Below, one piece after another: positions 8,347 through 48,210 of a DNA stretch of 64,000 nucleotides. The translations under genes were made by a program, and so were the position numbers. The notes beneath the pieces were generated by a model. It was not told the DNA's origin. It was given only the letters and a program-made list of their open reading frames with translations, and did no database searches. The stretch comes from Gambelia wislizenii. Lineage: Eukaryota > Chordata > Lepidosauria > Squamata > Crotaphytidae. The first letter of the stretch is position 1; each line of letters opens with the position of its first letter. Location: positions 163,653,001 to 163,717,000 of the forward strand of contig JAUMIR010000001.1 in the NCBI GenBank assembly GCA_030847615.1, in the 5' to 3' direction.

Positions 8347-8886
8347 TGTGAAGTCGAAGGCTTTCATGGCTGGCATCCATGGATTTTCCGTGGTTTTTTT
8401 CCGGGCCGTGAGGCCATGTTCTGGAATAGTTTCTTTCTGACGTTGTGCCTGCATCTGTGGCTGGCATCTTCAGAGAATGGTTGGGTAGGTGTGTGTGTGG
8501 AGTTTATATTCTGTGACACCCTGTTGGAGAGTATATGTAAATTTGTGTAATTGAATGGTTCATTTCTGGGTATAGAAATGCAAGGCTCGTTAGTTTGGCT
8601 AATGGTTGGTTGATGACCCATTATCTGCTGGGAATCTCCCTGTCTCTGTGTGGAATTCTTTTGTAAGTGTTGAAGTTTTGATTCTATTGTATTTCAAAAC
8701 TGGGAGCCAGATTTTGTTTACTTTTAAGGTTTCTTCTTTCCTGTTGAAGTTGTCCAGGTGTTTGTGGATTTCAATAGCTCCTCTGTGCATTTTGACATGA
8801 TAGTTGTTGGCCTGGTCTAGAATTCCTGTGTTTTCGAATAGCACTTTGTGTCCAGGTTGGTTTATAACATGTTCTGCTACTGCTAG
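8347..8886 (-). pseudogene. Penelope-like element 3' end, copy 1
   Basis: The minus strand at 8844-8599 encodes the C-terminal end of a polyprotein with the motif HRGAIEIHKH. This resembles the REAIEI..K region at the end of the GIY-YIG endonuclease of Penelope-like retroelements. A ~250-bp 3' tail follows to the left, ending AAGCCTTCGACTTCAC. The reverse transcriptase is absent, so it is a 5'-truncated copy. It lies in inverted orientation to the copy at 9839/15489, and a tail-only copy lies at 51042. The family assignment rests on one motif and the tail arrangement. Confidence 0.65.
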
Positions 8887-9838
8887 TTAAAAAGGGGGCT
8901 TTCGGTGACATACAACTGGCTTGCCCACCCCTGAATTCCCCCCCATGCCACCGGCTCCACCCCCCCTCAGAAAAGCCCCATTTTAAACCCATTCAGCTGG
9001 CCACCACAGGGAGAGAAGGAGGGAAAGAGGTCTCTGCAGCCGAAGGAAAAAAAATCCAAACACCAAGGGAATGGGGGGTGGTCAGAATGGGTTAAAAAGT
9101 GGGGCTTTCAGTGAGGATACTGGTTTGCCCACCCCTGGATTCCCCCCCCCTGGCCACTGGCTCCACCCCCCTCAGAAAAGCCCCGTTTTAAACCCATTCT
9201 GGCCACCGCAGGGAGAAGGAGGGAAAGAGGTGAAGACTCTGGAGCCAAAGGAAAAAATCCAAACACCAAGGGAAGGAGGGGGTTGGCCAGAATGAGTTAA
9301 AAAGGGGGCTTTCAGTGACATACAACTGGCTTGCCCATCCCTGGATTCCCTGTGGTGGCCAGCTGAATGGGTTTAAAACGGGGCTTTTCTGAGAGGGGTG
9401 GAGCCAGTGGCATGGGGGGGAATCCAGTGATGGGCAAGCCAGTTGTATGTCACTGAAAGCCCCCCTTTTAACCCATTCTGACCACACACCCCCTCATTCC
9501 CTTGGTGTTTGGATTTTTTTCCCTTCGGCTGCAGAGACCTCTTTCCCTCCTTCTCTCCCTGCGGTGGCCAGCCGAATGGGTTTAAAACGGGGCTTTTCTG
9601 AGGGGGGTGGAGCCGGTGGCATGGGGGGGGGAATCTGGGGGTGGGCAAGCCACTTGCATCGTCACCCCTTTGGTAGTAGAGCAGCAGCGTGAGTGGACCT
9701 CCTCTCCTCCTCCTTCCCTCCCTCCCTCCTCCCTCCCTGCCAGAATCTGTTTGAAAGGGGCTTTTGTGTTATTTGCGTTTTTTTCACATTCGCGGGTGGC
9801 TTGGGAACCTAACCCCAGCGAATGTGGAGGGACGACTG
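8887..9838. mobile_element. TA-flanked element made of inverted ~205-bp units
   Basis: Two direct units start at 8887 and 9091, each running AGGGGGCTTTC..CAACTGGCTTGCCCACCCC..AAAGCCCC..AACACCAAGGGAA. A partial third starts at 9296. The arrangement then inverts near 9350 and similar units run the other way to about 9680. The right terminus TTCGCGGGTGGC..GGAGGGACGACTG is followed by TA and then by Penelope-like sequence, implying insertion at a TA. Related termini bound 30627-31439. The left terminus was not found. Open frames here are repeat artefacts. Confidence 0.65.
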
Positions 9839-9917
9839 TAGAATCAAAACCTCAACACTTACAAAATAATTCCACCCAGAGACAGGGGGATTCCCAGCAG
9901 ATAATGGGCCATCAACC
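9839..9917 (+). pseudogene. Penelope-like element copy 2, left part
   Basis: The plus strand matches the reverse complement of 8600-8685 and encodes the equivalent C-terminal residues (RIKTSTLTK, then a stop, then FHPETGGFPADNGPST). It is cut at 9917 by the copia element and resumes at 15489. Confidence 0.7.
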
Positions 9918-10595
9918 TGTCAGGGATGATGGGAGTTGTAGCTCTTCACCTCTGGCTCAAACTCACCACCTTGTTATGCAGCAGAGCCAACCAGCTTAGA
10001 TCAGTGGTTAATGCTTTCCTCCAAAGCAGCAGAGTTTCAGAGAATAGGCTGAAGATCCTGACAAACTCTCCAAGCCTTCTCACTCTTCTCCAGGTGTCTC
10101 CAAAATGTCTCCAGGATTCACTCAGGCAACTCAGTAGTTTTATATAAAACCTACTTTATTCTTCTATATAAATATACTATATGGTAAACAAACCACAATC
10201 TCTACACATTACTCCACAATATCTCCAAACTACTGCACCTCTACTCAACCACACAAATACATTGGCAAACATTGCAATTTTATAGCCATTGTTTAACACC
10301 ACCCACTAGTTAGTTTCCACCCAGTGGGTGTGTACTTCCATTCTGATTGGTCCACATAGTTCCACCCATACTTAAGACCAACCCATGTATTTCAACATTT
10401 CACCTTGTACACTTAATGATTCTCAGGTGTTTCCAATCTGCATTCAGTACCTCTGTCCTTGGCTCTCAGGCCTTCTAGATTACATTAGCAGTTTCACCTG
10501 TGTAGCCCCATAATTGCTCTTGCTTAGTCATTGTGACTTTCACATACATATTTTATTTCTTTCACTGTATGTCCCATGTTGCATTTTCCTTAACA
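9918..10595 (-). repeat. 3' LTR of the copia element
   Basis: On the minus strand it runs TGTTAAGGAAAATGC to CATCATCCCTGACA, so it has TG..CA ends. TATA-like sequence (TATATTTATATAGAAG) and an AATAAA (plus-strand 10155-10160) lie close together toward its 3' part. Against the 5' LTR it differs at 10040 (G versus T at 14933) and 10347 (T versus C at 15240). Confidence 0.95.
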
Positions 10596-10604
10596 ATCCC
10601 CTCC
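10596..10604 (-). promoter_or_regulatory. Polypurine tract for plus-strand priming
   Basis: Minus-strand GGAGGGGAT lies directly against the 3' LTR, where LTR retrotransposons place the RNase H-resistant primer. Confidence 0.85.
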
Positions 10605-10626
10605 GAAATAAAATATTGTATGTGTC

Positions 10627-13600
10627 TTACAATGTCATTCCAACCATTTGTGTCAGCCTTTCATGTTTTTCTGCTGTCAATGCTTTTGTGAACAAATCTG
10701 CTATGTTGTGTTGTGTTTCTATATATCTCAGTTCTATTTCACCCTTCTGAACCATGTCTCGCACATTTTGATATCTTACACCAACATATTTTGTTCTGTT
10801 CTTCAAACTTTCAGTTTCAGCCATCGCTATGCATGACTGTGAATCTTCCAGAATTTCCACTGGTATCTTGTAACTTTCATTTAAATCATTTAGCAATTGC
10901 TTAATCCACTGTACCTCATTTACTATCTCATTCAAAGCAGCGAATTCTGCTTCCGTTGTGCTTATCGCTACATTAGTTTGTTTTCTACTTCTCCAAACTA
11001 TTGGACTTTCATTATATTTAATTATCATTCCTGTAACTGACTTCTTGTCTCCTAATTCTGATGCAAATGAACTGTCTACATAACAATCTAGATCTGAACT
11101 ATTGTTTCTTATTATCAATTTCCTATCTAAGGTTCCTTTTAAATATCTCAATAAATGTTTTACCGCTGTCCAGTCTTCAATTTTTGGATCATTAACCCTT
11201 CTAGACAATACATTTACAGCATAAGAAATGTCTGGTCTGGTGTGGCAAGATATGAATTGTAAAGATCCTATTATACTTCTGAAAAAAGTCTTGTCCTCAA
11301 ACGCTCTAGTTGTTTTCTCAGACACAAAACCAGTTGTCATTGGAGCTCTTACTATTTTTGCATTCTGTAATCCACACTTTTCAATCAGTCTTTCAATTTT
11401 ATTTCTCTGACTTAATAAACAATGTCCTTCTTCTGTCCATTCAACGCAAATACCTAAATAAGACTTCAATACACCTAAGTCCTTCAAAACAAACTTCTTA
11501 GACAATTCTCTTTTTACTGACTCAATTTCCTGTTTTGACTTTGCTGCTACGCACAAATCATCTACATAAATCACTAATACTATGTCTCCTTTTGTATAAA
11601 CACAAGCATCTGCAATGCTCCTCTTGTAACCTAGCTTAACTAGCTCATCATTGATGCACAGATTCCACGCTCTGGCACTTTGTTTTAAACCATACAACGC
11701 TTTCTTTAATTTATATACTCTCTGACTAGCATTTTCTTCGAAACCTTGTGGCTGTTCCATAAATATTTCTTCATCCAAAACCGCATTCAAGTAAGCTGTC
11801 TCAAAATCAAAATGTTCTACAATTAAATTCCTTTTTACTGCTACAGCTAGAACCATTCTCAGACTTTCTGGCTTTGCAGTTGGAGAATATGTCTTATCAT
11901 AGTTCTCATACTGCTGTTGTGCAAAACCCTTAGCCACTAACCTAGCTTTATATTTGATACTTCCATCTGGCATTTCTTTCCTTTTGTATACCCATTTACA
12001 ACCAATTACTTTCTTGTCTTTGGGTCTGTCAACAATTTCAAAAACATCTTTATTTACCAGGCAACCAAACTCATTATCCATTGCATCAAACCATCTTTCC
12101 TGTTCTTCACTAGAATAACTTTCCAATTCTTCAAAACTTTCAGGCTCTTCTATTGCTAAACAAGCTCTTGCCTTTGTCACAACAAACCTATCTGGAGGCT
12201 TTCTAACTCTATGACTACGCCTGGGAATAAAATCTGCTGTTCTGTCTCTTTCATCCTCACTTTCTCTACTAGGAGTTGTAGTTCTATGACTAAATCTCTT
12301 GTCTTCAGTCATTCGAGTAGTAGTAGGCCTAGATGCTATCTCATCATCAGAAGAACTACCACTGCTGCTAGGTGATGCTTCCTGCTTAACTGAAACCCCT
12401 CCGTTTCCTGAGGTTGGTTCAGTTTGTGCTTCTGGCTCATTTGAACTCCCTAATCTCAAAAACACTTCTTTATTGGCATGCAGTTTGTCCCAACCAGCAT
12501 GTCTCTCAAAATTTGCAGACCTAGAATACTGCACTTGTTTTCCTCCCAAATGAAACTTGTAGCTATTTCCAGAATACCCCAAAAACCTAAGCCTTTTGCT
12601 TTTGGGTTCTCCTTTCCTCCTGAAACAAGCAGGTGTATAAACATGAGCATATTGTCCAAAAACCCTTAAGTACTTGTAATTTGGCATTCTCCCATACAAT
12701 ACCCTGTAGGGAATGTCTTCAATTTCTGAATGATACAATCTGTTACTGATATGTATTGCAGTCAAAGTTGCTTCTGCCCAAAAACTATCTTTCACCCCTG
12801 CATCTGCCATCATACAAGCAGTAATTCTTTTTATATCTTGTATTTTCTTCTCTGCTAACCCATCCTCACTAGGACAAGCAGGGTTTGTAGTTTCATGCCT
12901 TATTCCCACCTTTTGAAACCAGTTAAACAATTGATTATTTAAAAATTCTCCTCCTCTATCAGTAATGATGGTGCCTACTCTGCTATCAAATTGTCTTTCC
13001 ACCATTCTTACCCATGCTTTCAAACTTTGCCCAGCGTCAGATTTGTTTTTCATTATTCTCACAAATGCAAACCTTGTATACCTATCAACAATTACTAGGA
13101 AATACTTGCTTCCCCCTAAGGACAAGCAATTAGCTTGGGCGACATCTGCATGTACATACTGAAATGGTCTTTGAGCAATTCTTTTTGTTTTCTTAGCTAC
13201 TGGAAAAGCTCTGACCTTTACCTGTTGACATACCGTACAATCTAAGTGGTTTTTGCATTCAGTAACTTTTAAATCTGGACACATACTGATTAAATTCTTT
13301 AAACATTTGAAGCTCGCATGGCCGAATTTTCTGTGAAGCTCGTGTATGCAGTCTTTGTGGATTGGAATATTTTCTATGTTATTAGCTTCTTCAACCCTGT
13401 AGCTATCAATATTGTCCTCCAAATAATAAAGTTTGTCCTTTTTCAAACCTATGCCACGCAATTCCCCATTCAGTTTTATCTTACACATGTTCTTTTCAAA
13501 GATGACTGTGTAGTCTCTTTCTGTTAATCTGCTTACTGATAACAAATTATTTTCTAACTCCTTTACATGTAAGACATCATTAAAATTCTCTTTTAGCCCT

Positions 13601-14592
13601 GGAATGTATACAGTACCCATTTGATTTACAGTACTTAGCTCTTTCCCGTCAGCCAAAACTACAGCATTTACATTAGCTGATTTTCTATTACTTATTAAAT
13701 TTATATCATTACACATCAAAGATGTGGATCCTGAATCAATTAGCCATTTAGAATTTGCATTTTGTTTTTCCTTAATCATGGTTGCAACCCCCTTTTTATT
13801 ACCACTGTCCCTCAAAAATGGAGGTCTGGACTGTTTTTGATACTGCTGCGGCTGCCATCTGCTCTCTGCTTGCTTGCGTCTCTCAGCTGCAAAATGTTTA
13901 CAATGTCTCTGCAGATGACCAATCTTCTTACAATAAAAGCACCTCCGTTGCTCCCTTGTAGAGGCTGCTTCCTCCTGCGTTCGCCAGTCAGGAGGTGTTT
14001 GTTGTTTTGGCACAGTCTTTAAGCTTGCTGAGTCACCCTGCTCAGACATTCTTCTCTGGTTCTCTTCCAGTATTCTGGCCACAACTAAGTCTCTATTAAG
14101 CTCAGCTTCTGGCAGGTTTTGCAGGCTGTTCGTTATATTGTCCCACGAAGAGTCTAGCGATTCTATTAAAATGTAGCATTGCTGCTCTTTGCTAATTTGC
14201 ACTCCCCTCAGTTCAGCTTGCACAAACAAATCTTGCATTATTTTTAAATGTTCTATCACACACTGCCCTTTAGCCATCTTTTGCCTGTATATTCTTTTAG
14301 ACCATAGCATTTTTGCAAAAGCAGTTGAAGGAGTGTGTAATCTCTGCAAGGTATCCCACACATCCTTGGCGGACGTTTTATCTCTGACGTCATTAATTAA
14401 GTCTTCTTCAAGCATGAGATAAAGACAGGCTTTTGCTTTACTATCTCTCTCTTGAGTGGCTTCATCAGCATCAGCTGCCAGCCCTGTTTCAACTGTTGAC
14501 CACAGACCTTCCTTTACTAGTAGAGATTGGGCATAAATCTTCCAGGTAGAGTAGTTGTTTCTATTTAATTTACTAAACTTTAGAATTTCCAT
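10627..14592 (-). CDS. Copia-type Gag-Pol polyprotein, 1321 aa, intact
   Basis: A single frame encodes all proteins, with no frameshift between gag and pol as in copia. In order: a UBN2-like Gag (about 1-180); a CCHC zinc knuckle CFYCKKIGHLQRHC (about 218-231); an aspartic protease with LIDSGST (about 284-290; the usual motif is DSGAT); a GAG-pre-integrase HHCC region (about 420-455). The integrase core has aspartates in VHADVAQ (about 483) and ITDRGGEF (about 545), and a glutamate in PSEDGLAEKK near 576-581. A serine/acid-rich linker (about 720-790) leads to reverse transcriptase with KARLVAKGF and YVDD (about 1009-1012). RNase H has Asp near 1173, STTEAEF (about 1212-1218) and EDSQS (about 1249), and the protein closes with NIADLFTKAL. 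The start is the first ATG, 202 bases past the primer site. The stop lies about 22 bases before the polypurine tract. No catalytic residue looks lost. Expression would come from the 5' LTR. Confidence 0.97.
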   Translation of the reverse strand: MEILKFSKLNRNNYSTWKIYAQSLLVKEGLWSTVETGLAADADEATQERDSKAKACLYLMLEEDLINDVRDKTSAKDVWDTLQRLHTPSTAFAKMLWSKRIYRQKMAKGQCVIEHLKIMQDLFVQAELRGVQISKEQQCYILIESLDSSWDNITNSLQNLPEAELNRDLVVARILEENQRRMSEQGDSASLKTVPKQQTPPDWRTQEEAASTREQRRCFYCKKIGHLQRHCKHFAAERRKQAESRWQPQQYQKQSRPPFLRDSGNKKGVATMIKEKQNANSKWLIDSGSTSLMCNDINLISNRKSANVNAVVLADGKELSTVNQMGTVYIPGLKENFNDVLHVKELENNLLSVSRLTERDYTVIFEKNMCKIKLNGELRGIGLKKDKLYYLEDNIDSYRVEEANNIENIPIHKDCIHELHRKFGHASFKCLKNLISMCPDLKVTECKNHLDCTVCQQVKVRAFPVAKKTKRIAQRPFQYVHADVAQANCLSLGGSKYFLVIVDRYTRFAFVRIMKNKSDAGQSLKAWVRMVERQFDSRVGTIITDRGGEFLNNQLFNWFQKVGIRHETTNPACPSEDGLAEKKIQDIKRITACMMADAGVKDSFWAEATLTAIHISNRLYHSEIEDIPYRVLYGRMPNYKYLRVFGQYAHVYTPACFRRKGEPKSKRLRFLGYSGNSYKFHLGGKQVQYSRSANFERHAGWDKLHANKEVFLRLGSSNEPEAQTEPTSGNGGVSVKQEASPSSSGSSSDDEIASRPTTTRMTEDKRFSHRTTTPSRESEDERDRTADFIPRRSHRVRKPPDRFVVTKARACLAIEEPESFEELESYSSEEQERWFDAMDNEFGCLVNKDVFEIVDRPKDKKVIGCKWVYKRKEMPDGSIKYKARLVAKGFAQQQYENYDKTYSPTAKPESLRMVLAVAVKRNLIVEHFDFETAYLNAVLDEEIFMEQPQGFEENASQRVYKLKKALYGLKQSARAWNLCINDELVKLGYKRSIADACVYTKGDIVLVIYVDDLCVAAKSKQEIESVKRELSKKFVLKDLGVLKSYLGICVEWTEEGHCLLSQRNKIERLIEKCGLQNAKIVRAPMTTGFVSEKTTRAFEDKTFFRSIIGSLQFISCHTRPDISYAVNVLSRRVNDPKIEDWTAVKHLLRYLKGTLDRKLIIRNNSSDLDCYVDSSFASELGDKKSVTGMIIKYNESPIVWRSRKQTNVAISTTEAEFAALNEIVNEVQWIKQLLNDLNESYKIPVEILEDSQSCIAMAETESLKNRTKYVGVRYQNVRDMVQKGEIELRYIETQHNIADLFTKALTAEKHERLTQMVGMTL

Positions 14593-14794
14593 CTTGATTT
14601 GTGCAGTGACTCAATTTGACACAGTCCTTCTGAGTATGCACAGCCGACCCGTCTGGGCTCAAGCAAAATACAAAATGATTTACTCACGAGGCTTATCAGT
14701 GCAGCACAAACAGCTTGCTCTGATCTATCGTCCACAAAGCTTTCTTCCACTCTCTGGAACTTTCAGCTTCTGTGGATGCTGGGTGCTCTAGTAA

Positions 14795-14809
14795 CTGGGC
14801 CCATAACCC
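14795..14809 (-). promoter_or_regulatory. Primer-binding site, anticodon arm of initiator tRNA-Met
   Basis: The plus strand reads CTGGGCCCATAACCC, identical to the anticodon stem-loop of eukaryotic initiator tRNA-Met, so the element RNA carries its complement one base after the 5' LTR. Drosophila copia is known to prime from a 5' half of this tRNA cut in the anticodon arm; the position here suggests the same. It does not match a tRNA 3' CCA end. Confidence 0.88.
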
Positions 14810-14810
14810 T

Positions 14811-15488
14811 TGTCAGGGATGATGGGAGTTGTAGCTCTTCACCTCTGGCTCAAACTCACCACCTTGTTATGCAGCAGAGCCAACCAGCTTAGATCAGTGG
14901 TTAATGCTTTCCTCCAAAGCAGCAGAGTTTCATAGAATAGGCTGAAGATCCTGACAAACTCTCCAAGCCTTCTCACTCTTCTCCAGGTGTCTCCAAAATG
15001 TCTCCAGGATTCACTCAGGCAACTCAGTAGTTTTATATAAAACCTACTTTATTCTTCTATATAAATATACTATATGGTAAACAAACCACAATCTCTACAC
15101 ATTACTCCACAATATCTCCAAACTACTGCACCTCTACTCAACCACACAAATACATTGGCAAACATTGCAATTTTATAGCCATTGTTTAACACCACCCACT
15201 AGTTAGTTTCCACCCAGTGGGTGTGTACTTCCATTCTGACTGGTCCACATAGTTCCACCCATACTTAAGACCAACCCATGTATTTCAACATTTCACCTTG
15301 TACACTTAATGATTCTCAGGTGTTTCCAATCTGCATTCAGTACCTCTGTCCTTGGCTCTCAGGCCTTCTAGATTACATTAGCAGTTTCACCTGTGTAGCC
15401 CCATAATTGCTCTTGCTTAGTCATTGTGACTTTCACATACATATTTTATTTCTTTCACTGTATGTCCCATGTTGCATTTTCCTTAACA
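14811..15488 (-). repeat. 5' LTR of the copia element
   Basis: 678 bp, same length as the 3' LTR. It should hold the promoter for the Gag-Pol frame; TATA-like sequence lies around plus-strand 15040-15075. Confidence 0.95.
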
Positions 15489-15725
15489 CAACCAACCATT
15501 AGCCAAACAGACACTAATGAGCCTTGCATTTCTATACCCAGAAAATAACCATTCAATTACACAAATTGACATAGTCTTCCCAACAGGGGTTCACAGAATA
15601 TAAACTCCACACACACTCCTACCCAACCATTTTCTGAAGATGCCACCCACAGATGCAGGCACAACGTCAGAAACTATTCCAGAACATGGCCTCACAGCCC
15701 GGAAAAAAACCAAGGAAAATCATAA
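15489..15725 (+). pseudogene. Penelope-like element copy 2, right part
   Basis: Continues 9839-9917 after the copia insertion: ACAACGTCAGAAACTATTCC, then AGAACATGGCCTCACAGCCC, then the tail ending near AAGGAAAATCA. Several in-frame stops; no coding function. Confidence 0.7.
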
Positions 15726-18644: not shown

Positions 18645-18904
18645 ATTATTTATTTATTTATTTATTTATACCCCGCTCTTCAGCCACAAGGCTATCAGAG
18701 TGGCTTACAAATTGTTTTAAGCAATAGCAATTTACACATCTACACTGCATTAAGCAGTTTCCAATGTGTGTTAGCTAATTGCCCCCACAAGCTGGGTACT
18801 CATTTTACTGACCTACGAAAGGCTGAAAGGCTGAGTGAACCTTGGAGCCCTCTGGAACTGAACATGCAACGTGGTGATTTGCAGTACTGACACTGCACCA
18901 CCAG
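18645..18904 (-). mobile_element. LINE-tail repeat nested in the L2-like 3' region
   Basis: Starts with a TTTA array (18648-18670), then CCCCGCTCTTCAGCCACAAG, and ends near TTTGCAGTACTGACACTGCACCACCAGG. This resembles a dispersed squamate LINE-tail repeat. ATGA at both borders and continuity of the host sequence suggest a separate insertion. Confidence 0.5.
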
Positions 18905-18924
18905 GTATGATCATAACAGCGGGC

Positions 18925-21260
18925 AGAAAAAATTATCCTAGTGGCAGAGTATTGTACCGAAATCAAGAGGGCAAGATAGGAAAGAGGAAGCCCAGTTAGG
19001 AAAGAATTACAGGAATCGCGAGAAATTACCAGTGCATGAACCAAAGTCTTAGCAGTAAAAACTGAAAGAAAAGGCCTAATTCTCACTAGATTATAAAGAA
19101 AGAAATGACACGACTTTGCTGTAGTCTGAATTTGAGGAACAAATGAAAGGGAAGAATTGAAAATGAAACCAAGACTATGCACTTCCTTCACAGGGTGACT
19201 ATTAGTGCCATTAACTGTGATTGAAAATAAATAATGCAGAGTTGGCTTCAGTGGGAAAACAATTAGCTCAGTCTTGTGCATATTGAGCTTAAGGGGCCGA
19301 CGGAGCATCCAAGCAGAAATAGCAGATAGACATGATGACAGTCGCTGTTCAACATTCAGAGAGCGTTCCGGAGTGGAAAAATACAGTTGGGTGTCATCAG
19401 CGTATAAGTGATACTGAAAACCATAGGCGCCAATAAGGTTACCTAAGGACAAAGTATATAGAGAAAATAACAATGGGCCCAAAATGGAGCCCTGTGGAAC
19501 TCCAATGGACAGCGACATAGGAGCAGAGATTTGACCACCAGCAATCACTGCAAATGACCTATCATAAAGGTAGGATCTGAACTAGTTAAGGACGGAATGA
19601 GAAAATCCAAGATCCTGAAGCAGATCCACCATAAGACCATGATCAACAGTATCAAAGGCAGTGGAAAACTCAAGAAGAATCAATACTGTGTAAAGACTTT
19701 TTGATTTGGCCAAGAAAAGATCATCAGTAATTTTGGCAAGAGCTGTCTCAGTCAAGTGTAATGGATGAAAGCCAGACAGAAAAGGATCCATTAGAGAGTT
19801 AGTGGAGAGAAATTCTAGACGAGAATAAACAGTACATTCCAGAATCTTAGAAAAGAAAGGCAAGCATGAGATTGGCTGATAACTAGAGAGAGAGAGCGGG
19901 TCAAGTGAGGGCTTCTTGAGAATGGGAGAAACCAAAACATGTTTGAAATCAGAGGGAAAGTGACCAGGAGGGAGAGAGAGAGAGAGAAATAATAGAAAGA
20001 GAAGAAGGGAGAATAGAAGGAGCAACCGAGCTTAATAAGCGAGAGGGAATGTGATCAAGAGAACAAGTAGATGAGTTAGATGATTTCACCAGTTTAGCTA
20101 GTTCAGCTAGAGAGACCTGGGGGAAGGTGGAAAATTTTACCAATATGGGTGGCTGAGGTACTGGAACAAGAGACGAGTCACGGACTTCCATAGAAGAACA
20201 TATTAGATCGATCTTAGCAGTGAAGTGAGAAGCAAAATTGTTAGGAGAAAATGAAGAAGGAACTGATGGAGATGAGGGTTTTAACAGAGAATTAAAAGTT
20301 GAGAAAAGATGCTGAGGCCATTGCTCATTAGCACTAATCAGGGATGCATAATAATTCTGTTTTGCCAGGGAGACAGCACACAAATAAGAAAAAAGAATAA
20401 ATTTATAATTAATAAAGCCAGCCAATTCCCTGGACCTTTTCCATAGACCAGGCTGCTCAAGAGCAAGATCGGAGATACGGATCAACTGAAGTAAGCCAGG
20501 ACTGTGGCTTAATTGAAGAAGTTGCACAAGTCAATAAAGGGGCAAAACAGTCAAGAGTATGGGATAAGGTTGAATTAAATAAAGAGATAGCTGAATCCAC
20601 AGAGCTGCGAAGACTTAAAGAAGATAGAAAAGAATCCAATGCCTGGCCGAATGCCTCAGAATTCACAGAGTGAAAAGAATGCTGAATAATCCGGCGAGGG
20701 GGAGGGCAATAAGTGAGGGAAAAGGAAATAAGGTAATGGTCTCATAACAGAAATTCAGTAGCTGAATATTCAGAAGGTACACATTTTTTAGTCAAAAATA
20801 AATCAAGGCAATGTCCAAGAGAGTAGGTGACCTAGAGAAGAGTTCAAAACCAAAAGAAGATAGCAGAGCACTAAAATGACTGGCTGTAAGATTATTAAGA
20901 TCGTCCATATGAATATTGAAGTCTCCCATGATAAGGATTGGGACCTTTTCCGTCAAGAAATATGTCAGCCAAGAATCAAAGTCAGAAAGGAACTTGGCTG
21001 ATGGCCCAGGTGACTACAACACACAATTGAAGAGGCAAGAAAAGTTTAATAGCAAGAAACTCAAATGAAGAGAAGCAGTAAGTTTGAGGAAATGATAAAA
21101 CTTGAAACTGGCATTGACTAGATAACAAAATGCCAACTCCCCCACCTCTACCCTCTCGGTGACTAGAATGGGTAAAAGAAAGGTTGCCAAACAAGAGGGC
21201 AGCCGAGGTAACAGTGTCCTGGGGGAAATCCAGGTTTCTGTAAGAGCCAGGAGAATAAGG
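18925..21260 (-). pseudogene. L2-like ORF2 remnant (endonuclease + reverse transcriptase)
   Basis: Read from right to left. The endonuclease shows LTETWI near 21220 and, after a frameshift, GRGGGVGILL near 21150. A further segment has ILIMGDFNIHMDD near 20920. A linker region follows at 20666-20050. Reverse transcriptase begins about 19970 with VSPILKKPSLDP and includes FSTAFDTVDH near 19650. A stop separates this from GVPQGSILGPLLFSLY and YADDTQLY (about 19510-19380), then LKLNMHKTELIVF near 19270. The C-terminal part decays by 18925. The order and motifs fit the L2/CR1 superclade. Stops and frameshifts make it inactive. Confidence 0.8.
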
Positions 21261-32464: not shown

Positions 32465-33432
32465 CTATCCCTCTGGCTTTTCTTTGCAAACGAAGATTCA
32501 GGAAGGACTCATCCCGCGCTTACTGCAAGCACGCTGATGACTAAAAAGGCCAATCCGAGATAAACAAGTCCAGTTGCAGAAAGCATAGCAGAAGGTCTCC
32601 TTGGGTGATGTTTCTGGGTTGTGATTCTTTCTGCATTGTCGTTTCTCTTCAAGACTTGTTCGGCGTGAGTTCTCAAATAAGGCTGCAGCATTGTGAATAG
32701 TGCGTCTCCATGCCTTCCGATGTGAGGCCAGGGCGGACCATCAATTTGGCCGAGCCTGAGATGTTGTTTCAGGGAGTCCTTGTATCGCTTTTTTGGAGCA
32801 CCCCTCTTACGCTGACCCGCGGCGAGTTCACCATAGAGTACTATTTTGGGGAGGCGATGGTCCTCCATCCTAGAAATGTGCCCTGCCCAGCGCAGCTGTG
32901 TTCTCAATATCATGGCCTCAATGCTGGTGATCCCTGCTTGCTCAAGGACAGCAACATTCGTCACATAGTCAGTCCAGTGTATATTTAGGATTGTGCACAA
33001 ACAGCACTGATGAAAGTGTTCAAGGAGTCGTAAGTGGTGGTGATAGGTGACCCATGTTTCAGACCCATAAAGGAGAATAGACAGTACAATGGCTCTATAC
33101 ACACTGATTTTTGTGCTTTGCCTCAGCTGTTTATTACTCCAGACTCTTTTGTAAAGTCTTCCAAATGCGCTATATGCCTTTGCTAATCTGTGATCAATCT
33201 CTTTGTCAATCTTGGCATCTGAGGAGATGATGCTTCCCAGGTAGGTGAACTGCTGAACGGATTTAAGCACAGAGTTGCCGGTGGCAATGTGGGGATGGTG
33301 GTGTTCGTCCTGTGGTGCAGGCTGGTAAAGAACTTCTGTTTTCTTCAGGTTGACTTCCAGCCCAAACAGCTCTGCAGCTGTTGAGAAGCTAGGCGCTGCA
33401 GAGCTGCTTCTGTGTGGGCAACAAGGGCAGCA
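32465..33432 (-). pseudogene. Non-LTR retrotransposon C-terminal remnant
   Basis: The minus strand has a 253-codon open frame (33270-32509). It starts LKSVQQFTYLGSIISSDAKI, then AFGRLYKRVWSNKQL, LLYGSETWVTYHHHL, LRWAGHISRMEDHRLPK and KRGAPKKRYKDSLKQHL. These are the thumb and post-RT regions of a LINE polyprotein. Upstream, DAAALVAHTEAALQRL (near 33430) matches the region following the catalytic YADD; the frame then breaks. The clade is uncertain (RTE-like features but not Bov-B). The 3' tail is shared with 30519-30597. The endonuclease and most of RT are missing. Confidence 0.8.
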
Positions 33433-34992
33433 GCATCAGGACACCTAGAATTACCCTTTTGTGTCAAAAAAGGCGAACTGCTGTTCTTGGAAGTCTCAAA
33501 GTGCAGCAGTTAACTTTTAAAATATGTTCCAAGTCCTCTCTGTACTGCTTAACATACAGTACTTGTTTTTGACAAACAGAAGTGGACTTCTAGCCACATA
33601 GAATTTTTAAATCCATAGGCCACATGGCTTATTTTTGGGGTGGTCCATGTGGCCTTTGGAGGGTCCCAGAACATAAAAATGGCTCCAGAACCTGCTGCAG
33701 TTGACCAGAACTGAACTAAAGAAAAAGCACTGGGCAATGTTACTTTTTTTTTTTTTTTTTTTTTTTTTTGGTATTACAGCCCCCAGAACCTCCCAGAGAT
33801 CATGTTCCCTGGGGGATTCTGGAAGGTATAGTCTTTCAAAAAGTAATAGGGTCAAACTCTGGTTCTAAACACACTGTGAGCAGTTTGGGAACAAGGAAGC
33901 AGGTGTGTATTAATCTTGGTCAGTGGTCTGAGCAACACTCCAAGGCCATTTTGGTAGATCTGCCAATTTACGAAAAGCAGTGTCCAAGGTACAACCAAAC
34001 TTTGCTGCATTTTGCCTTCTCAAACAACAACTGGATGTTCAAGAGAATCAAAAGGAGAATAGGCTCTTTAGCAGTTTTAAAAATATGTATCTAGGAGGTA
34101 GCCCGTTAACTCCAGTTTTGGAGACATCTGCTGAGTGGACAATGCGCCCCTAGAGTTGGGGTATTGGGTGAGAGCAAGGTGCCAGAGTCTGGAAAAGTTT
34201 TTTTTTTAATATTACACCTCCCAGAATCTCACAGCTAGCACAGCTGCTGGCTGTATCAATAACTAGGCCACTAAGCACAATGTCTGAGGTTTTTTGGGAG
34301 TTCTTGTTTAAAAAGTAACTTCTTCAAGCTCTAAACCTTCTGTAGTGCTTTAAATTAAAACAATTTTTCTATATACAAGTACTGTACAAAAGTATCTTTT
34401 CTTGTATATGGCTCTAAGGAATAAACTTCCAAAAGATATCGAAATTAACTGTAGCCAAGTGTCAAATAAGCACATATTTTAAAATGCTGTAATAAAAAAT
34501 TACAGGAAGGAAAACAAACCCTAACTGTTATATTGTTTTCATACATTTTCAGTATGCTGCCAAAATGAATTCTTTTGGAGAGTAACAAAAGGACCAAACT
34601 CAGTCTATGTCTACTTAGGTTTTCCCTTAAGCAGAAATGTGAGATGTTAGCTTGAACAATTATAAATGCATGAAGAGAAGGTGATGCAGTGCCTCACAGA
34701 AGACAATAGATTGTATCAGTAGATTATCATCACAGACAGTAAAACTATGTGACTAGTGGCTCTGCAAGCCACACAGTCACCTTTCTTTCATTTTATGCAC
34801 AGAGAGCTTGAGGGCTTGTACTGGAAGATGTTTTCACATATTAGTTATGGCATGTGGCTGATGTGAATTCCAAATGACATCCTTTATTGCATACTTGCTT
34901 GTTTTAAATAATCAGCCTTGATGTTTAATGATAGGAACTGGCAAAGAAAAAAGGCCACTTATTTCTTCACTGTTCTTTTGTCACTTTTGAAG
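33433..34992. other. No gene; poly-T tract at 33744-33769
   Basis: Near 33774-33850 and 34204-34240 are hairpin-MITE-like words (ATTACAGCCCCCAGAACC, ATTACACCTCCCAGAATC). The rest is unique-looking AT-rich DNA. Confidence 0.5.
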
Positions 34993-47707: not shown

Positions 47708-48210
47708 CTTAAAGCATTGCTTTCTATTGGAAGGAAAAGAAGTGTGGGTGAAGAGTGGGGTGTGACAGAAAGCACTTAAAACATTGCTTTCTATTGAAAG
47801 GAAAAGAAGTAGGGGGAGGATTAGGGGGACAGACAGAACTTAAAGCATTTATACTTTCTATTGGAACGAAAAGAATGGGGTGGGACAGAAAGCACTTAAA
47901 GCATTGCTTTCTATTGGAAGGAAAAGAAGTGAGGGGGAAGAGTGGGGGGACATACAGAACTTAAAGCATTGCTTACTATTGGAAGGAAAAGAAGTGGGGG
48001 AAGAGTGATGTGGGACAGAAAGCACTTAAAGCATTGCTTTCTATTGGAAGGAAAAGAAGTAGGGGGAGGAGTGGGGGGACAGACAGAACTTAAAATATTG
48101 CTTTCTTTTGGAAGGAAAAGAAGTGGGGAGGAGTGGGGGACAGACAGAACTTAAAGCATTGCTTTCTGTTGGAAGGAAAAGTGGTGGGGACAGGGGATGG
48201 ACGTTCTCTT
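47708..48210. repeat. ~64-bp minisatellite, eight units
   Basis: CTTAAAGCATTGCTTTCTAT-type unit starts fall at 47708, 47775, 47839, 47895, 47960, 48025, 48089 and 48150. Units tend to alternate between GACAGAAAGCA and GACAGACAGAA endings, hinting at a ~129-bp dimer. Open frames are repetitive by-products. Confidence 0.88.

What the first reader, a model, noticed from the sequence alone, without database searches (positions are those of the whole stretch)
9918..15488. Intact, very young Ty1/copia element in an amniote-like genome
The sequence shows one unbroken 1321-codon Gag-Pol frame, LTRs with two differences in 678 bp, a polypurine tract and a clean CAACC duplication. Copia elements are known to be rare in amniotes compared with Gypsy and LINEs. 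A low LTR divergence means a recent insertion and makes a still-active lineage, or a recent horizontal transfer, plausible.
Basis: partly seen in the sequence, partly recalled or inferred. Interest (0 to 1): 0.78.

Follow-up and report, generated by a model that had tools for sequence, protein, structure and literature searches.

The report
Young copia retrotransposon, many intact kin
This is a complete, recently inserted copy of a virus-like jumping gene of the copia group in what looks like a lizard genome that holds many more intact copies, so it is an ordinary member of a large and probably still active population.

Summary
In detail: a full-length Ty1/copia LTR retrotransposon lies on the minus strand at 9918-15488, with 678-bp LTRs (2 differences), a CAACC duplication, a PBS, a short PPT and an open 1321-codon Gag-Pol frame. 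An uninterrupted paralogue of the target repeat (8382-8686) shows the empty site with one CAACC.

The copy is not special. In its own 2.47-Gb assembly, 150 RT matches were scored (of 6313 candidates); these 150 are 99-100% identical without a stop, and by hand count 121 of 150 lie in the window's 1327-codon open frame. Of 19 LTR pairs compared (18 fetched plus the window's), 14 have no substitution, so the window copy is among the older ones. Copies differ by about 1.1-1.5%, with dN/dS 0.10-0.19 and signs of recombination.

The genome holds further copia families; the one placed in a tree groups with the window's. Papers report copia in Anolis, Urosaurus, Uta, snakes and tuatara. Best reading: an ordinary, probably still active copia family of a squamate. 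Horizontal transfer has no positive support but is not excluded, since no second species could be searched.

The parts
15489..15493 (.). target-site duplication CAACC, side of the 5' LTR
   Evidence: sequence; empty-site paralogue
14811..15488 (-). 5' LTR, 678 bp, TG...CA
15172..15177 (-). TATAAA in the 5' LTR (LTR position 312), candidate promoter
   Evidence: motif scan, which also found TATA-like matches at LTR positions 426, 450 and 452; choice and function inferred
15048..15053 (-). AATAAA in the 5' LTR (LTR position 436), candidate polyadenylation signal
   Evidence: motif scan, which also found one at LTR position 39; choice and function inferred
14789..14810 (-). primer binding site region, sense AGGGTTATGGGCCCAGTTACTA
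   Evidence: the same 22 bases in 8 of 10 full-length copies, one base changed in each of the other 2; complementarity to the initiator tRNA-Met anticodon arm recalled, not tested
10627..14592 (-). Gag-Pol frame, 1321 codons
13900..13941 (-). CCHC zinc knuckle of Gag (residues 218-231)
   Evidence: motif; Retrotran_gag_2 E 2.5e-28 on the same piece
13726..13737 (-). DSGS, aspartic protease active-site motif (residues 286-289)
   Evidence: motif; no protease model matched
12877..13173 (-). integrase core (rve), residues 474-572
   Evidence: Pfam E 1.3e-14
11335..12048 (-). reverse transcriptase (RVT_2), residues 849-1086, YVDD at residue 1009
   Evidence: Pfam E 3.7e-49 and 6.3e-15 on two pieces; motif
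10678..11085 (-). RNase H region (motifs at residues 1170, 1213, 1299)
   Evidence: motifs; no Pfam match of its own
10596..10604 (-). polypurine tract GGAGGGGAT
   Evidence: sequence; same last 14 internal bases in 10 of 10 copies
9918..10595 (-). 3' LTR, 678 bp
9913..9917 (.). target-site duplication CAACC, side of the 3' LTR
   Evidence: sequence
8382..8686 (-). inverted paralogue of the target repeat, uninterrupted: empty-site control

Best explanation
An autonomous Ty1/copia LTR retrotransposon of a squamate (most likely iguanian) genome, one recent insertion of a large family that is probably still moving. Mechanism: transcription from the LTR (TATA near position 312, AATAAA near 436), translation of one Gag-Pol polyprotein, self-assembly of intracellular particles, reverse transcription primed by a fragment of initiator tRNA-Met, integration with a 5-bp duplication. 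Shown here: anatomy, duplication, empty-site paralogue, identical LTR pairs, many open frames, purifying selection, a recombination signal, other copia families in the same genome. Inferred: transcription, particle formation, half-tRNA priming, present-day movement, the host clade.
For: Anatomy and domains; empty site. Own genome: the LTR query gave 1811 candidates, and the 40 scored are 98-100% identical; the RT query gave 6313 candidates, and the 150 scored are 99-100% identical without stop, 121 of 150 in the 1327-codon frame by hand count. Ten full-length copies (nine fetched plus the window's) have a 4215-bp interior and the 1321-codon frame open in 10 of 10, with matching 5-bp flanks in 8 of 10. 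14 of 19 LTR pairs have no substitution, and 19 of 19 pairs are sisters in a tree of 58 LTR rows. dN/dS 0.19 across 10 copies chosen by LTR, 0.10 across 27 copies chosen by RT and 0.15 across those 27 outside the RT query. Of 20 single LTRs fetched, 11 are solo LTRs, 8 of the 11 with identical 5-bp flanks. In a tree of 66 rows the window family, a second family of the same genome (L088) and P0121 form one clade, SH-aLRT 100.
Against: No transcript, particle or new insertion was observed. The copies were ranked by similarity to the window copy, so they favour young intact copies; even so 29 of the 150 RT matches lie in frames of other lengths, 516 to 1342 codons, and 3 of 30 loci looked at in detail were broken or out of register. 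Total copy number is not known: only the best candidates are scored and the pattern counts did not complete. Recombination among copies could be gene conversion rather than template switching.
Confidence: 0.9

Rival explanations
1. The family entered the host lineage recently by horizontal transfer, for example from an invertebrate or a parasite, and then burst. (This concerns origin and overlaps with the best explanation, which concerns what it is and how it works.)
For: Young insertions. No close relative in the protein collection: best RT identities about 44-48%, and among the rows that bear a name (120 rows listed by each, most nameless) none names a vertebrate.
Against: The same genome holds other copia families: L088-L091 at 45-46% identity to the window over 475 residues, and 88 rows scoring 459-464 bits against P0121 where 27 window-family copies score 415-423. 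L088 groups with the window family. Synonymous divergence among copies, about 4%, far exceeds the LTR divergence, so several lineages co-existed before the present insertions. Vertebrate gene sets usually leave transposons out (recalled), and the searches limit candidates by length and shared words, so absence there is weak evidence.
Confidence: 0.08
2. An old, fixed, vertically inherited family whose LTR pairs only look young because of gene conversion.
For: Linkage between sites decays with distance (mean r2 0.11 to 0.04) and incompatible site pairs are common, so sequence exchange among copies does occur.
Against: LTR pairs are identical within elements yet the nine further elements are 94-98% identical to the window LTR; 19 of 19 pairs are sisters; the full frame is open in 121 of 150 scored matches; matching 5-bp flanks remain in 8 of 10 and 7 of 9 elements.
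Confidence: 0.04
3. The window copy is a lone intact survivor, a contaminant or an assembly artefact.
For: None found beyond the single copy in the window itself.
Against: It lies in a 502-Mb contig beside an empty-site paralogue, and the other 149 scored RT matches, at 99%, lie on eleven contigs.
Confidence: 0.01

Closest known systems
Pseudoviridae / Ty1-copia superfamily (ICTV profile PMC8515867, whole text read)
   Same: LTR-PBS-gag-PR-IN-RT-RH-PPT-LTR, single gag-pol frame, size within the stated 4 to >9 kb
   Different: nothing seen outside the described range
[quoted passage not shown] PMC8515867)
   Same: PBS sense GGGTTATGGGCCCAG matches, by recalled tRNA sequence, the complement of the initiator tRNA-Met anticodon arm and not the tRNA 3' end
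   Different: host tRNA not compared: no search for it was sent
Copia elements of squamates: corn-snake OCA2 insertion, 5,832 bp, Repbase hit Copia-6 of Anolis carolinensis (PMC4657000, passages); Anolis polymorphic copia (PMC7561263, passages); Urosaurus 0.67% (PMC10699878, passage); Uta 0.27% (PMC12154890, passages)
   Same: recently mobile or resident copia in squamates
   Different: their sequences were not held, so family identity with this element was not tested
Mtanga-like Ty1/Copia of tuatara (PMC7116210, passages) and copia types of frogs (PMC4131045, passages)
   Same: abundant copia in a lepidosaur; several copia types in a tetrapod
   Different: the window element was not tested against an Mtanga sequence
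P0121, unnamed protein from a public contig
   Same: best-scoring protein, 44% over RT-RNase H; same clade in the tree
   Different: source organism unknown

Membership tests
Ty1/copia (Pseudoviridae) | integrase before reverse transcriptase in Pol | tested here: met
   rve at residues 474-572, RVT_2 at residues 849-1086
Ty1/copia (Pseudoviridae) | copia-type Gag with zinc knuckle | tested here: met
   Retrotran_gag_2 E 2.5e-28; CX2CX4HX4C at residue 218
Ty1/copia (Pseudoviridae) | near-identical LTRs with TG...CA ends, PBS and PPT next to them, short target duplication | tested here: met
   PBS as a primer site inferred
Ty1/copia (Pseudoviridae) | forms intracellular virus-like particles | not testable with these tools
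   no expression data
Hemivirus | primer is a short segment of a tRNA, not its 3' end | tested here: inconclusive
   PBS sequence, same 22 bases in 8 of 10 copies; tRNA sequence recalled, host tRNA not searched
Mtanga-like clade | groups with Mtanga in an RT tree | not tested
   no Mtanga sequence was held; the tree has no row named so
Anolis Copia-6 / corn-snake OCA2 element | nucleotide or protein identity to that family | not tested
   sequence not held

The most novel reading that the evidence does not exclude
An ongoing outbreak of at least two copia families in one amniote genome, kept up by many recombining source copies rather than a single master, and begun for the window family by a fairly recent horizontal transfer.
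Probability: 0.08. Interest if true: 0.65.

Novelty: new member of a known kind. Interest (0 to 1): 0.35.

Why it matters
Recently moving copia populations in amniotes are documented. A genome with more than a hundred scored matches in full-length open frames, identical LTR pairs and several copia families is a good place to ask how copia lineages co-exist, recombine and are silenced in a vertebrate germ line. As a single element it is ordinary.

Tried and rejected
Viral contigs: an RT search and a PBS pattern search found nothing (records near the window's genome may be left out there). PDB sequence search with RT: no match. No tRNA by ARAGORN and no Rfam match at gathering threshold in the window. 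Host naming through a LINE-like fragment: among the 120 rows listed, those with a name are birds, fish, a ray, a turtle, shrimp, molluscs, corals and other invertebrates, none a squamate (most rows nameless). The first script on 30 loci failed because loci were not oriented; one search corrected it, and there 3 of 30 loci (L043, L057, L059) were dropped before the 27-copy counts. One of ten LTR pairs fetched (L076/L077) was not comparable and was left out of the LTR counts. For the trees 24 of 235 proteins with under 85% coverage were dropped, and of the remaining 211 only the 45 best-scoring plus the named ones were used; the long-branch Closterium row was dropped. The partner LTR of the 9 one-sided single LTRs was not looked for. 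A lone-survivor reading and an LTR-homogenisation reading were considered and rejected (see rivals).

Wanted and not obtained: counts of LTR-PBS junctions (total copy number, solo-LTR ratio) and sequence of the 88-row family; the tools stayed busy. A search for the host's initiator tRNA was planned but never sent.
Full report
Observation. The window holds a complete LTR retrotransposon on the minus strand between 9918 and 15488. Its two LTRs are 678 bp and differ at two positions, one transition and one transversion (K2P 0.0030; the 95% Poisson range for two differences is 0.24 to 7.2). CAACC flanks both ends. Between the LTRs lie a presumed primer binding site directly after the 5' LTR, a 1321-codon frame at 10627-14592 and a short polypurine tract before the 3' LTR. 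With substitution rates between 0.5e-9 and 2.2e-9 per site and year (assumed) the two differences give about 0.7 to 3 million years, with limits from 0.08 to 10.7.

Empty site. The insertion broke a repeat whose inverted paralogue lies nearby, at 8382-8686. With the element left out, the two flanks align to that paralogue through the insertion point with a single CAACC, 281 of 302 ungapped positions identical plus a few gaps elsewhere. This confirms the boundaries and the 5-bp duplication independently of the LTRs.

Protein. Four pieces of the frame match, in order, Retrotran_gag_2 (2.5e-28; DUF4219 also, below its cut-off), Pol_BBD, gag_pre-integrs, rve (1.3e-14), SH3_retrovirus and RVT_2 (3.7e-49 and 6.3e-15). 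A CCHC knuckle, a DSG motif, YVDD and RNase H motifs are in their usual places (motif names recalled); no protease or RNase H model matched. Integrase before reverse transcriptase is the copia order. The sense PBS, AGGGTTATGGGCCCAGTTACT, looks like the complement of the initiator tRNA-Met anticodon arm and not of its 3' end; use of a short tRNA segment marks Hemivirus (PMC8515867, whole text). The tRNA sequence is recalled and was not compared with the host's, so this point is inconclusive.

Own genome. The window lies at C1:163653001-163717000 of a 2,466,384,532-base assembly in 68 contigs. Of the contigs seen in the fetches six are large (502, 449, 380, 338, 270 and 163 Mb) and three are near 40 Mb, which resembles the six macrochromosomes plus microchromosomes described for Uta (PMC12154890, passages). 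With the squamate-like repeats of the window (recalled) this suggests an iguanian lizard. The species was not identified.

Copies. The LTR query gave 1811 candidates; the 40 that were scored are 98-100% identical. The 252-residue RT query gave 6313 candidates; the 150 that were scored are 99-100% identical over the full query without a stop, and by hand count 121 of 150 lie in an open frame of exactly the window's 1327 codons from stop to stop, 29 in frames of 516 to 1342 codons. These lists hold only the best candidates, so they do not give the copy number and they favour intact copies. Two matches 4891 bp apart on C1 suggest a tandem arrangement.

Age of copies. Nine further full-length copies were fetched. 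Ten of ten, the window included, have a 4215-bp interior and the 1321-codon frame open; the LTR pair differs by 2 substitutions in the window copy, by 1 in each of two copies, by a 2-bp end difference in one, and not at all in six; 5-bp flanks match in eight of ten. For ten more elements only the LTR ends were taken: nine were comparable, seven pairs identical and two with 2 substitutions (one of these, L080/L081, also with 4 gapped positions at the end), flanks matching in seven of nine. Together 14 of 19 pairs have no substitution, there are 8 substitutions in all, and 19 of 19 pairs are sisters in a tree of 58 LTR rows. The window copy, with 2, is thus among the older of those looked at. 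Twenty single LTRs were also fetched: 11 are solo LTRs, 8 of the 11 with identical 5-bp flanks, and 9 have the interior on one side; the partners of these 9 were not sought.

Population structure. Among the ten full-length copies the frames differ by 47 to 70 of 3963 bases; mean dN 0.0079, dS 0.042, ratio 0.19; variable sites at codon positions 1, 2, 3: 58, 37, 114. Among 27 of 30 RT-ranked loci, 2916 bases each, the mean difference is 32.6; the ratio is 0.10 overall and 0.15 outside the RT query that ranked them. Linkage falls with distance (mean r2 0.11 under 50 bp, 0.04 over 1000 bp) and incompatible site pairs rise from 38.4% under 100 bp to 45.7% over 1000 bp; 20 of 2000 site permutations reached that rise. 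LTR lengths range from 654 to 678 bp. So several lineages, under purifying selection and exchanging sequence, were replicating before the present insertions. Template switching between co-packaged RNAs or gene conversion could explain the exchange; the data do not separate them. Because reverse transcription adds errors, dS among copies is not a clock.

Other copia in the same genome. Searching with P0121, the best-scoring protein, gave 92 scored matches of 8018 candidates: four at 48-49% identity (L088 without a stop, L089-L091 with TGA stops) and 88 at 46% without a stop inside, 58 of the 88 by hand count in a 1324-codon frame. L088-L091 are 45-46% identical to the window over 475 residues. 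Against P0121 27 window-family copies score 415-423 bits and L088 480, while the 88 rows score 459-464. From these scores I infer that the 88 rows are a third family; their sequences and their distance to the window family were not obtained. In a tree of 66 rows the window family, L088 and P0121 form a clade with SH-aLRT 100, inside a 21-row clade with 96 (short search, no bootstrap). Two families about 46% identical in one genome point to an old resident clade.

Relatives elsewhere. Two protein searches with parts of the frame listed 120 rows each; the best RT identities are about 44-48%, and of the rows that bear a name none names a vertebrate (most rows are nameless, and one search scored only the 7981 candidates sharing most words). 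Vertebrate gene sets usually leave transposons out (recalled), so this does not show absence. No other species' genome could be searched: says that the window's genome has no relatives in the collection.

Published context. The tuatara paper reports an especially abundant Mtanga-like Ty1/Copia element (PMC7116210, passages). A 5,832-bp copia insertion in OCA2 is the likely cause of corn-snake amelanism, with a Repbase hit to Anolis Copia-6 (PMC4657000, passages). An Anolis study lists 1962 copia in its table of polymorphic insertions (PMC7561263, passages). Copia makes 0.47-1.65% across the six columns of a snake table whose header was partly cut in the passage, and copia subfamilies are expressed in four hydrophiine snakes (PMC8872380, passages); copia expanded recently in Hydrophis ornatus (PMC10709897, passages) and makes 0.67% of the Urosaurus and 0.27% of the Uta genome (PMC10699878 and PMC12154890, passages). 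Copia in squamates is therefore established.

Verdict. The finding is real and the element is young, but it is one of many. It is a new member of a known kind: an autonomous copia retrotransposon in a genome with several copia families, two of them with many intact copies among the matches scored, probably still moving. Horizontal transfer is possible but has no positive support here.

Noticed in passing
window 9927-9941 and 14820-14834 (LTR ends): Both LTRs end in sense CTACAACTCCCATCATCCCTGACA, which resembles the ZNF143-type promoter motif ACTACAACTCCCAGCATGC (recalled); possibly a regulatory site in U5. With up to 2 mismatches the 15-mer occurs 5 times in the window, 0.12 expected.
   Followed up: partly
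window 32512-33435 (-): Open stretch with a LINE-like reverse-transcriptase tail, about 54-78% identical to named proteins of suboscine birds, fish, a ray, a turtle, shrimp, sea slugs and corals; its own Pfam match is only a sub-threshold DUF6451.
   Followed up: partly
window 18805-20530 (-): Broken LINE reverse transcriptase (RVT_1 on two of three open stretches), L2-like by recall.
   Followed up: no
window 47708-48189: Tandem array of a 65-bp unit, 7.6 copies.
   Followed up: no
window 8885-9666: Nested direct and inverted repeats beside the insertion.
   Followed up: no
G000:C1:270469082 and 270473973: Two RT matches of the family 4891 bp apart in the same orientation, as if two elements share a middle LTR.
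   Followed up: no
L016: A full-length copy whose 3' LTR lacks its usual last two bases and whose flanks do not match, so it may be rearranged.
   Followed up: no
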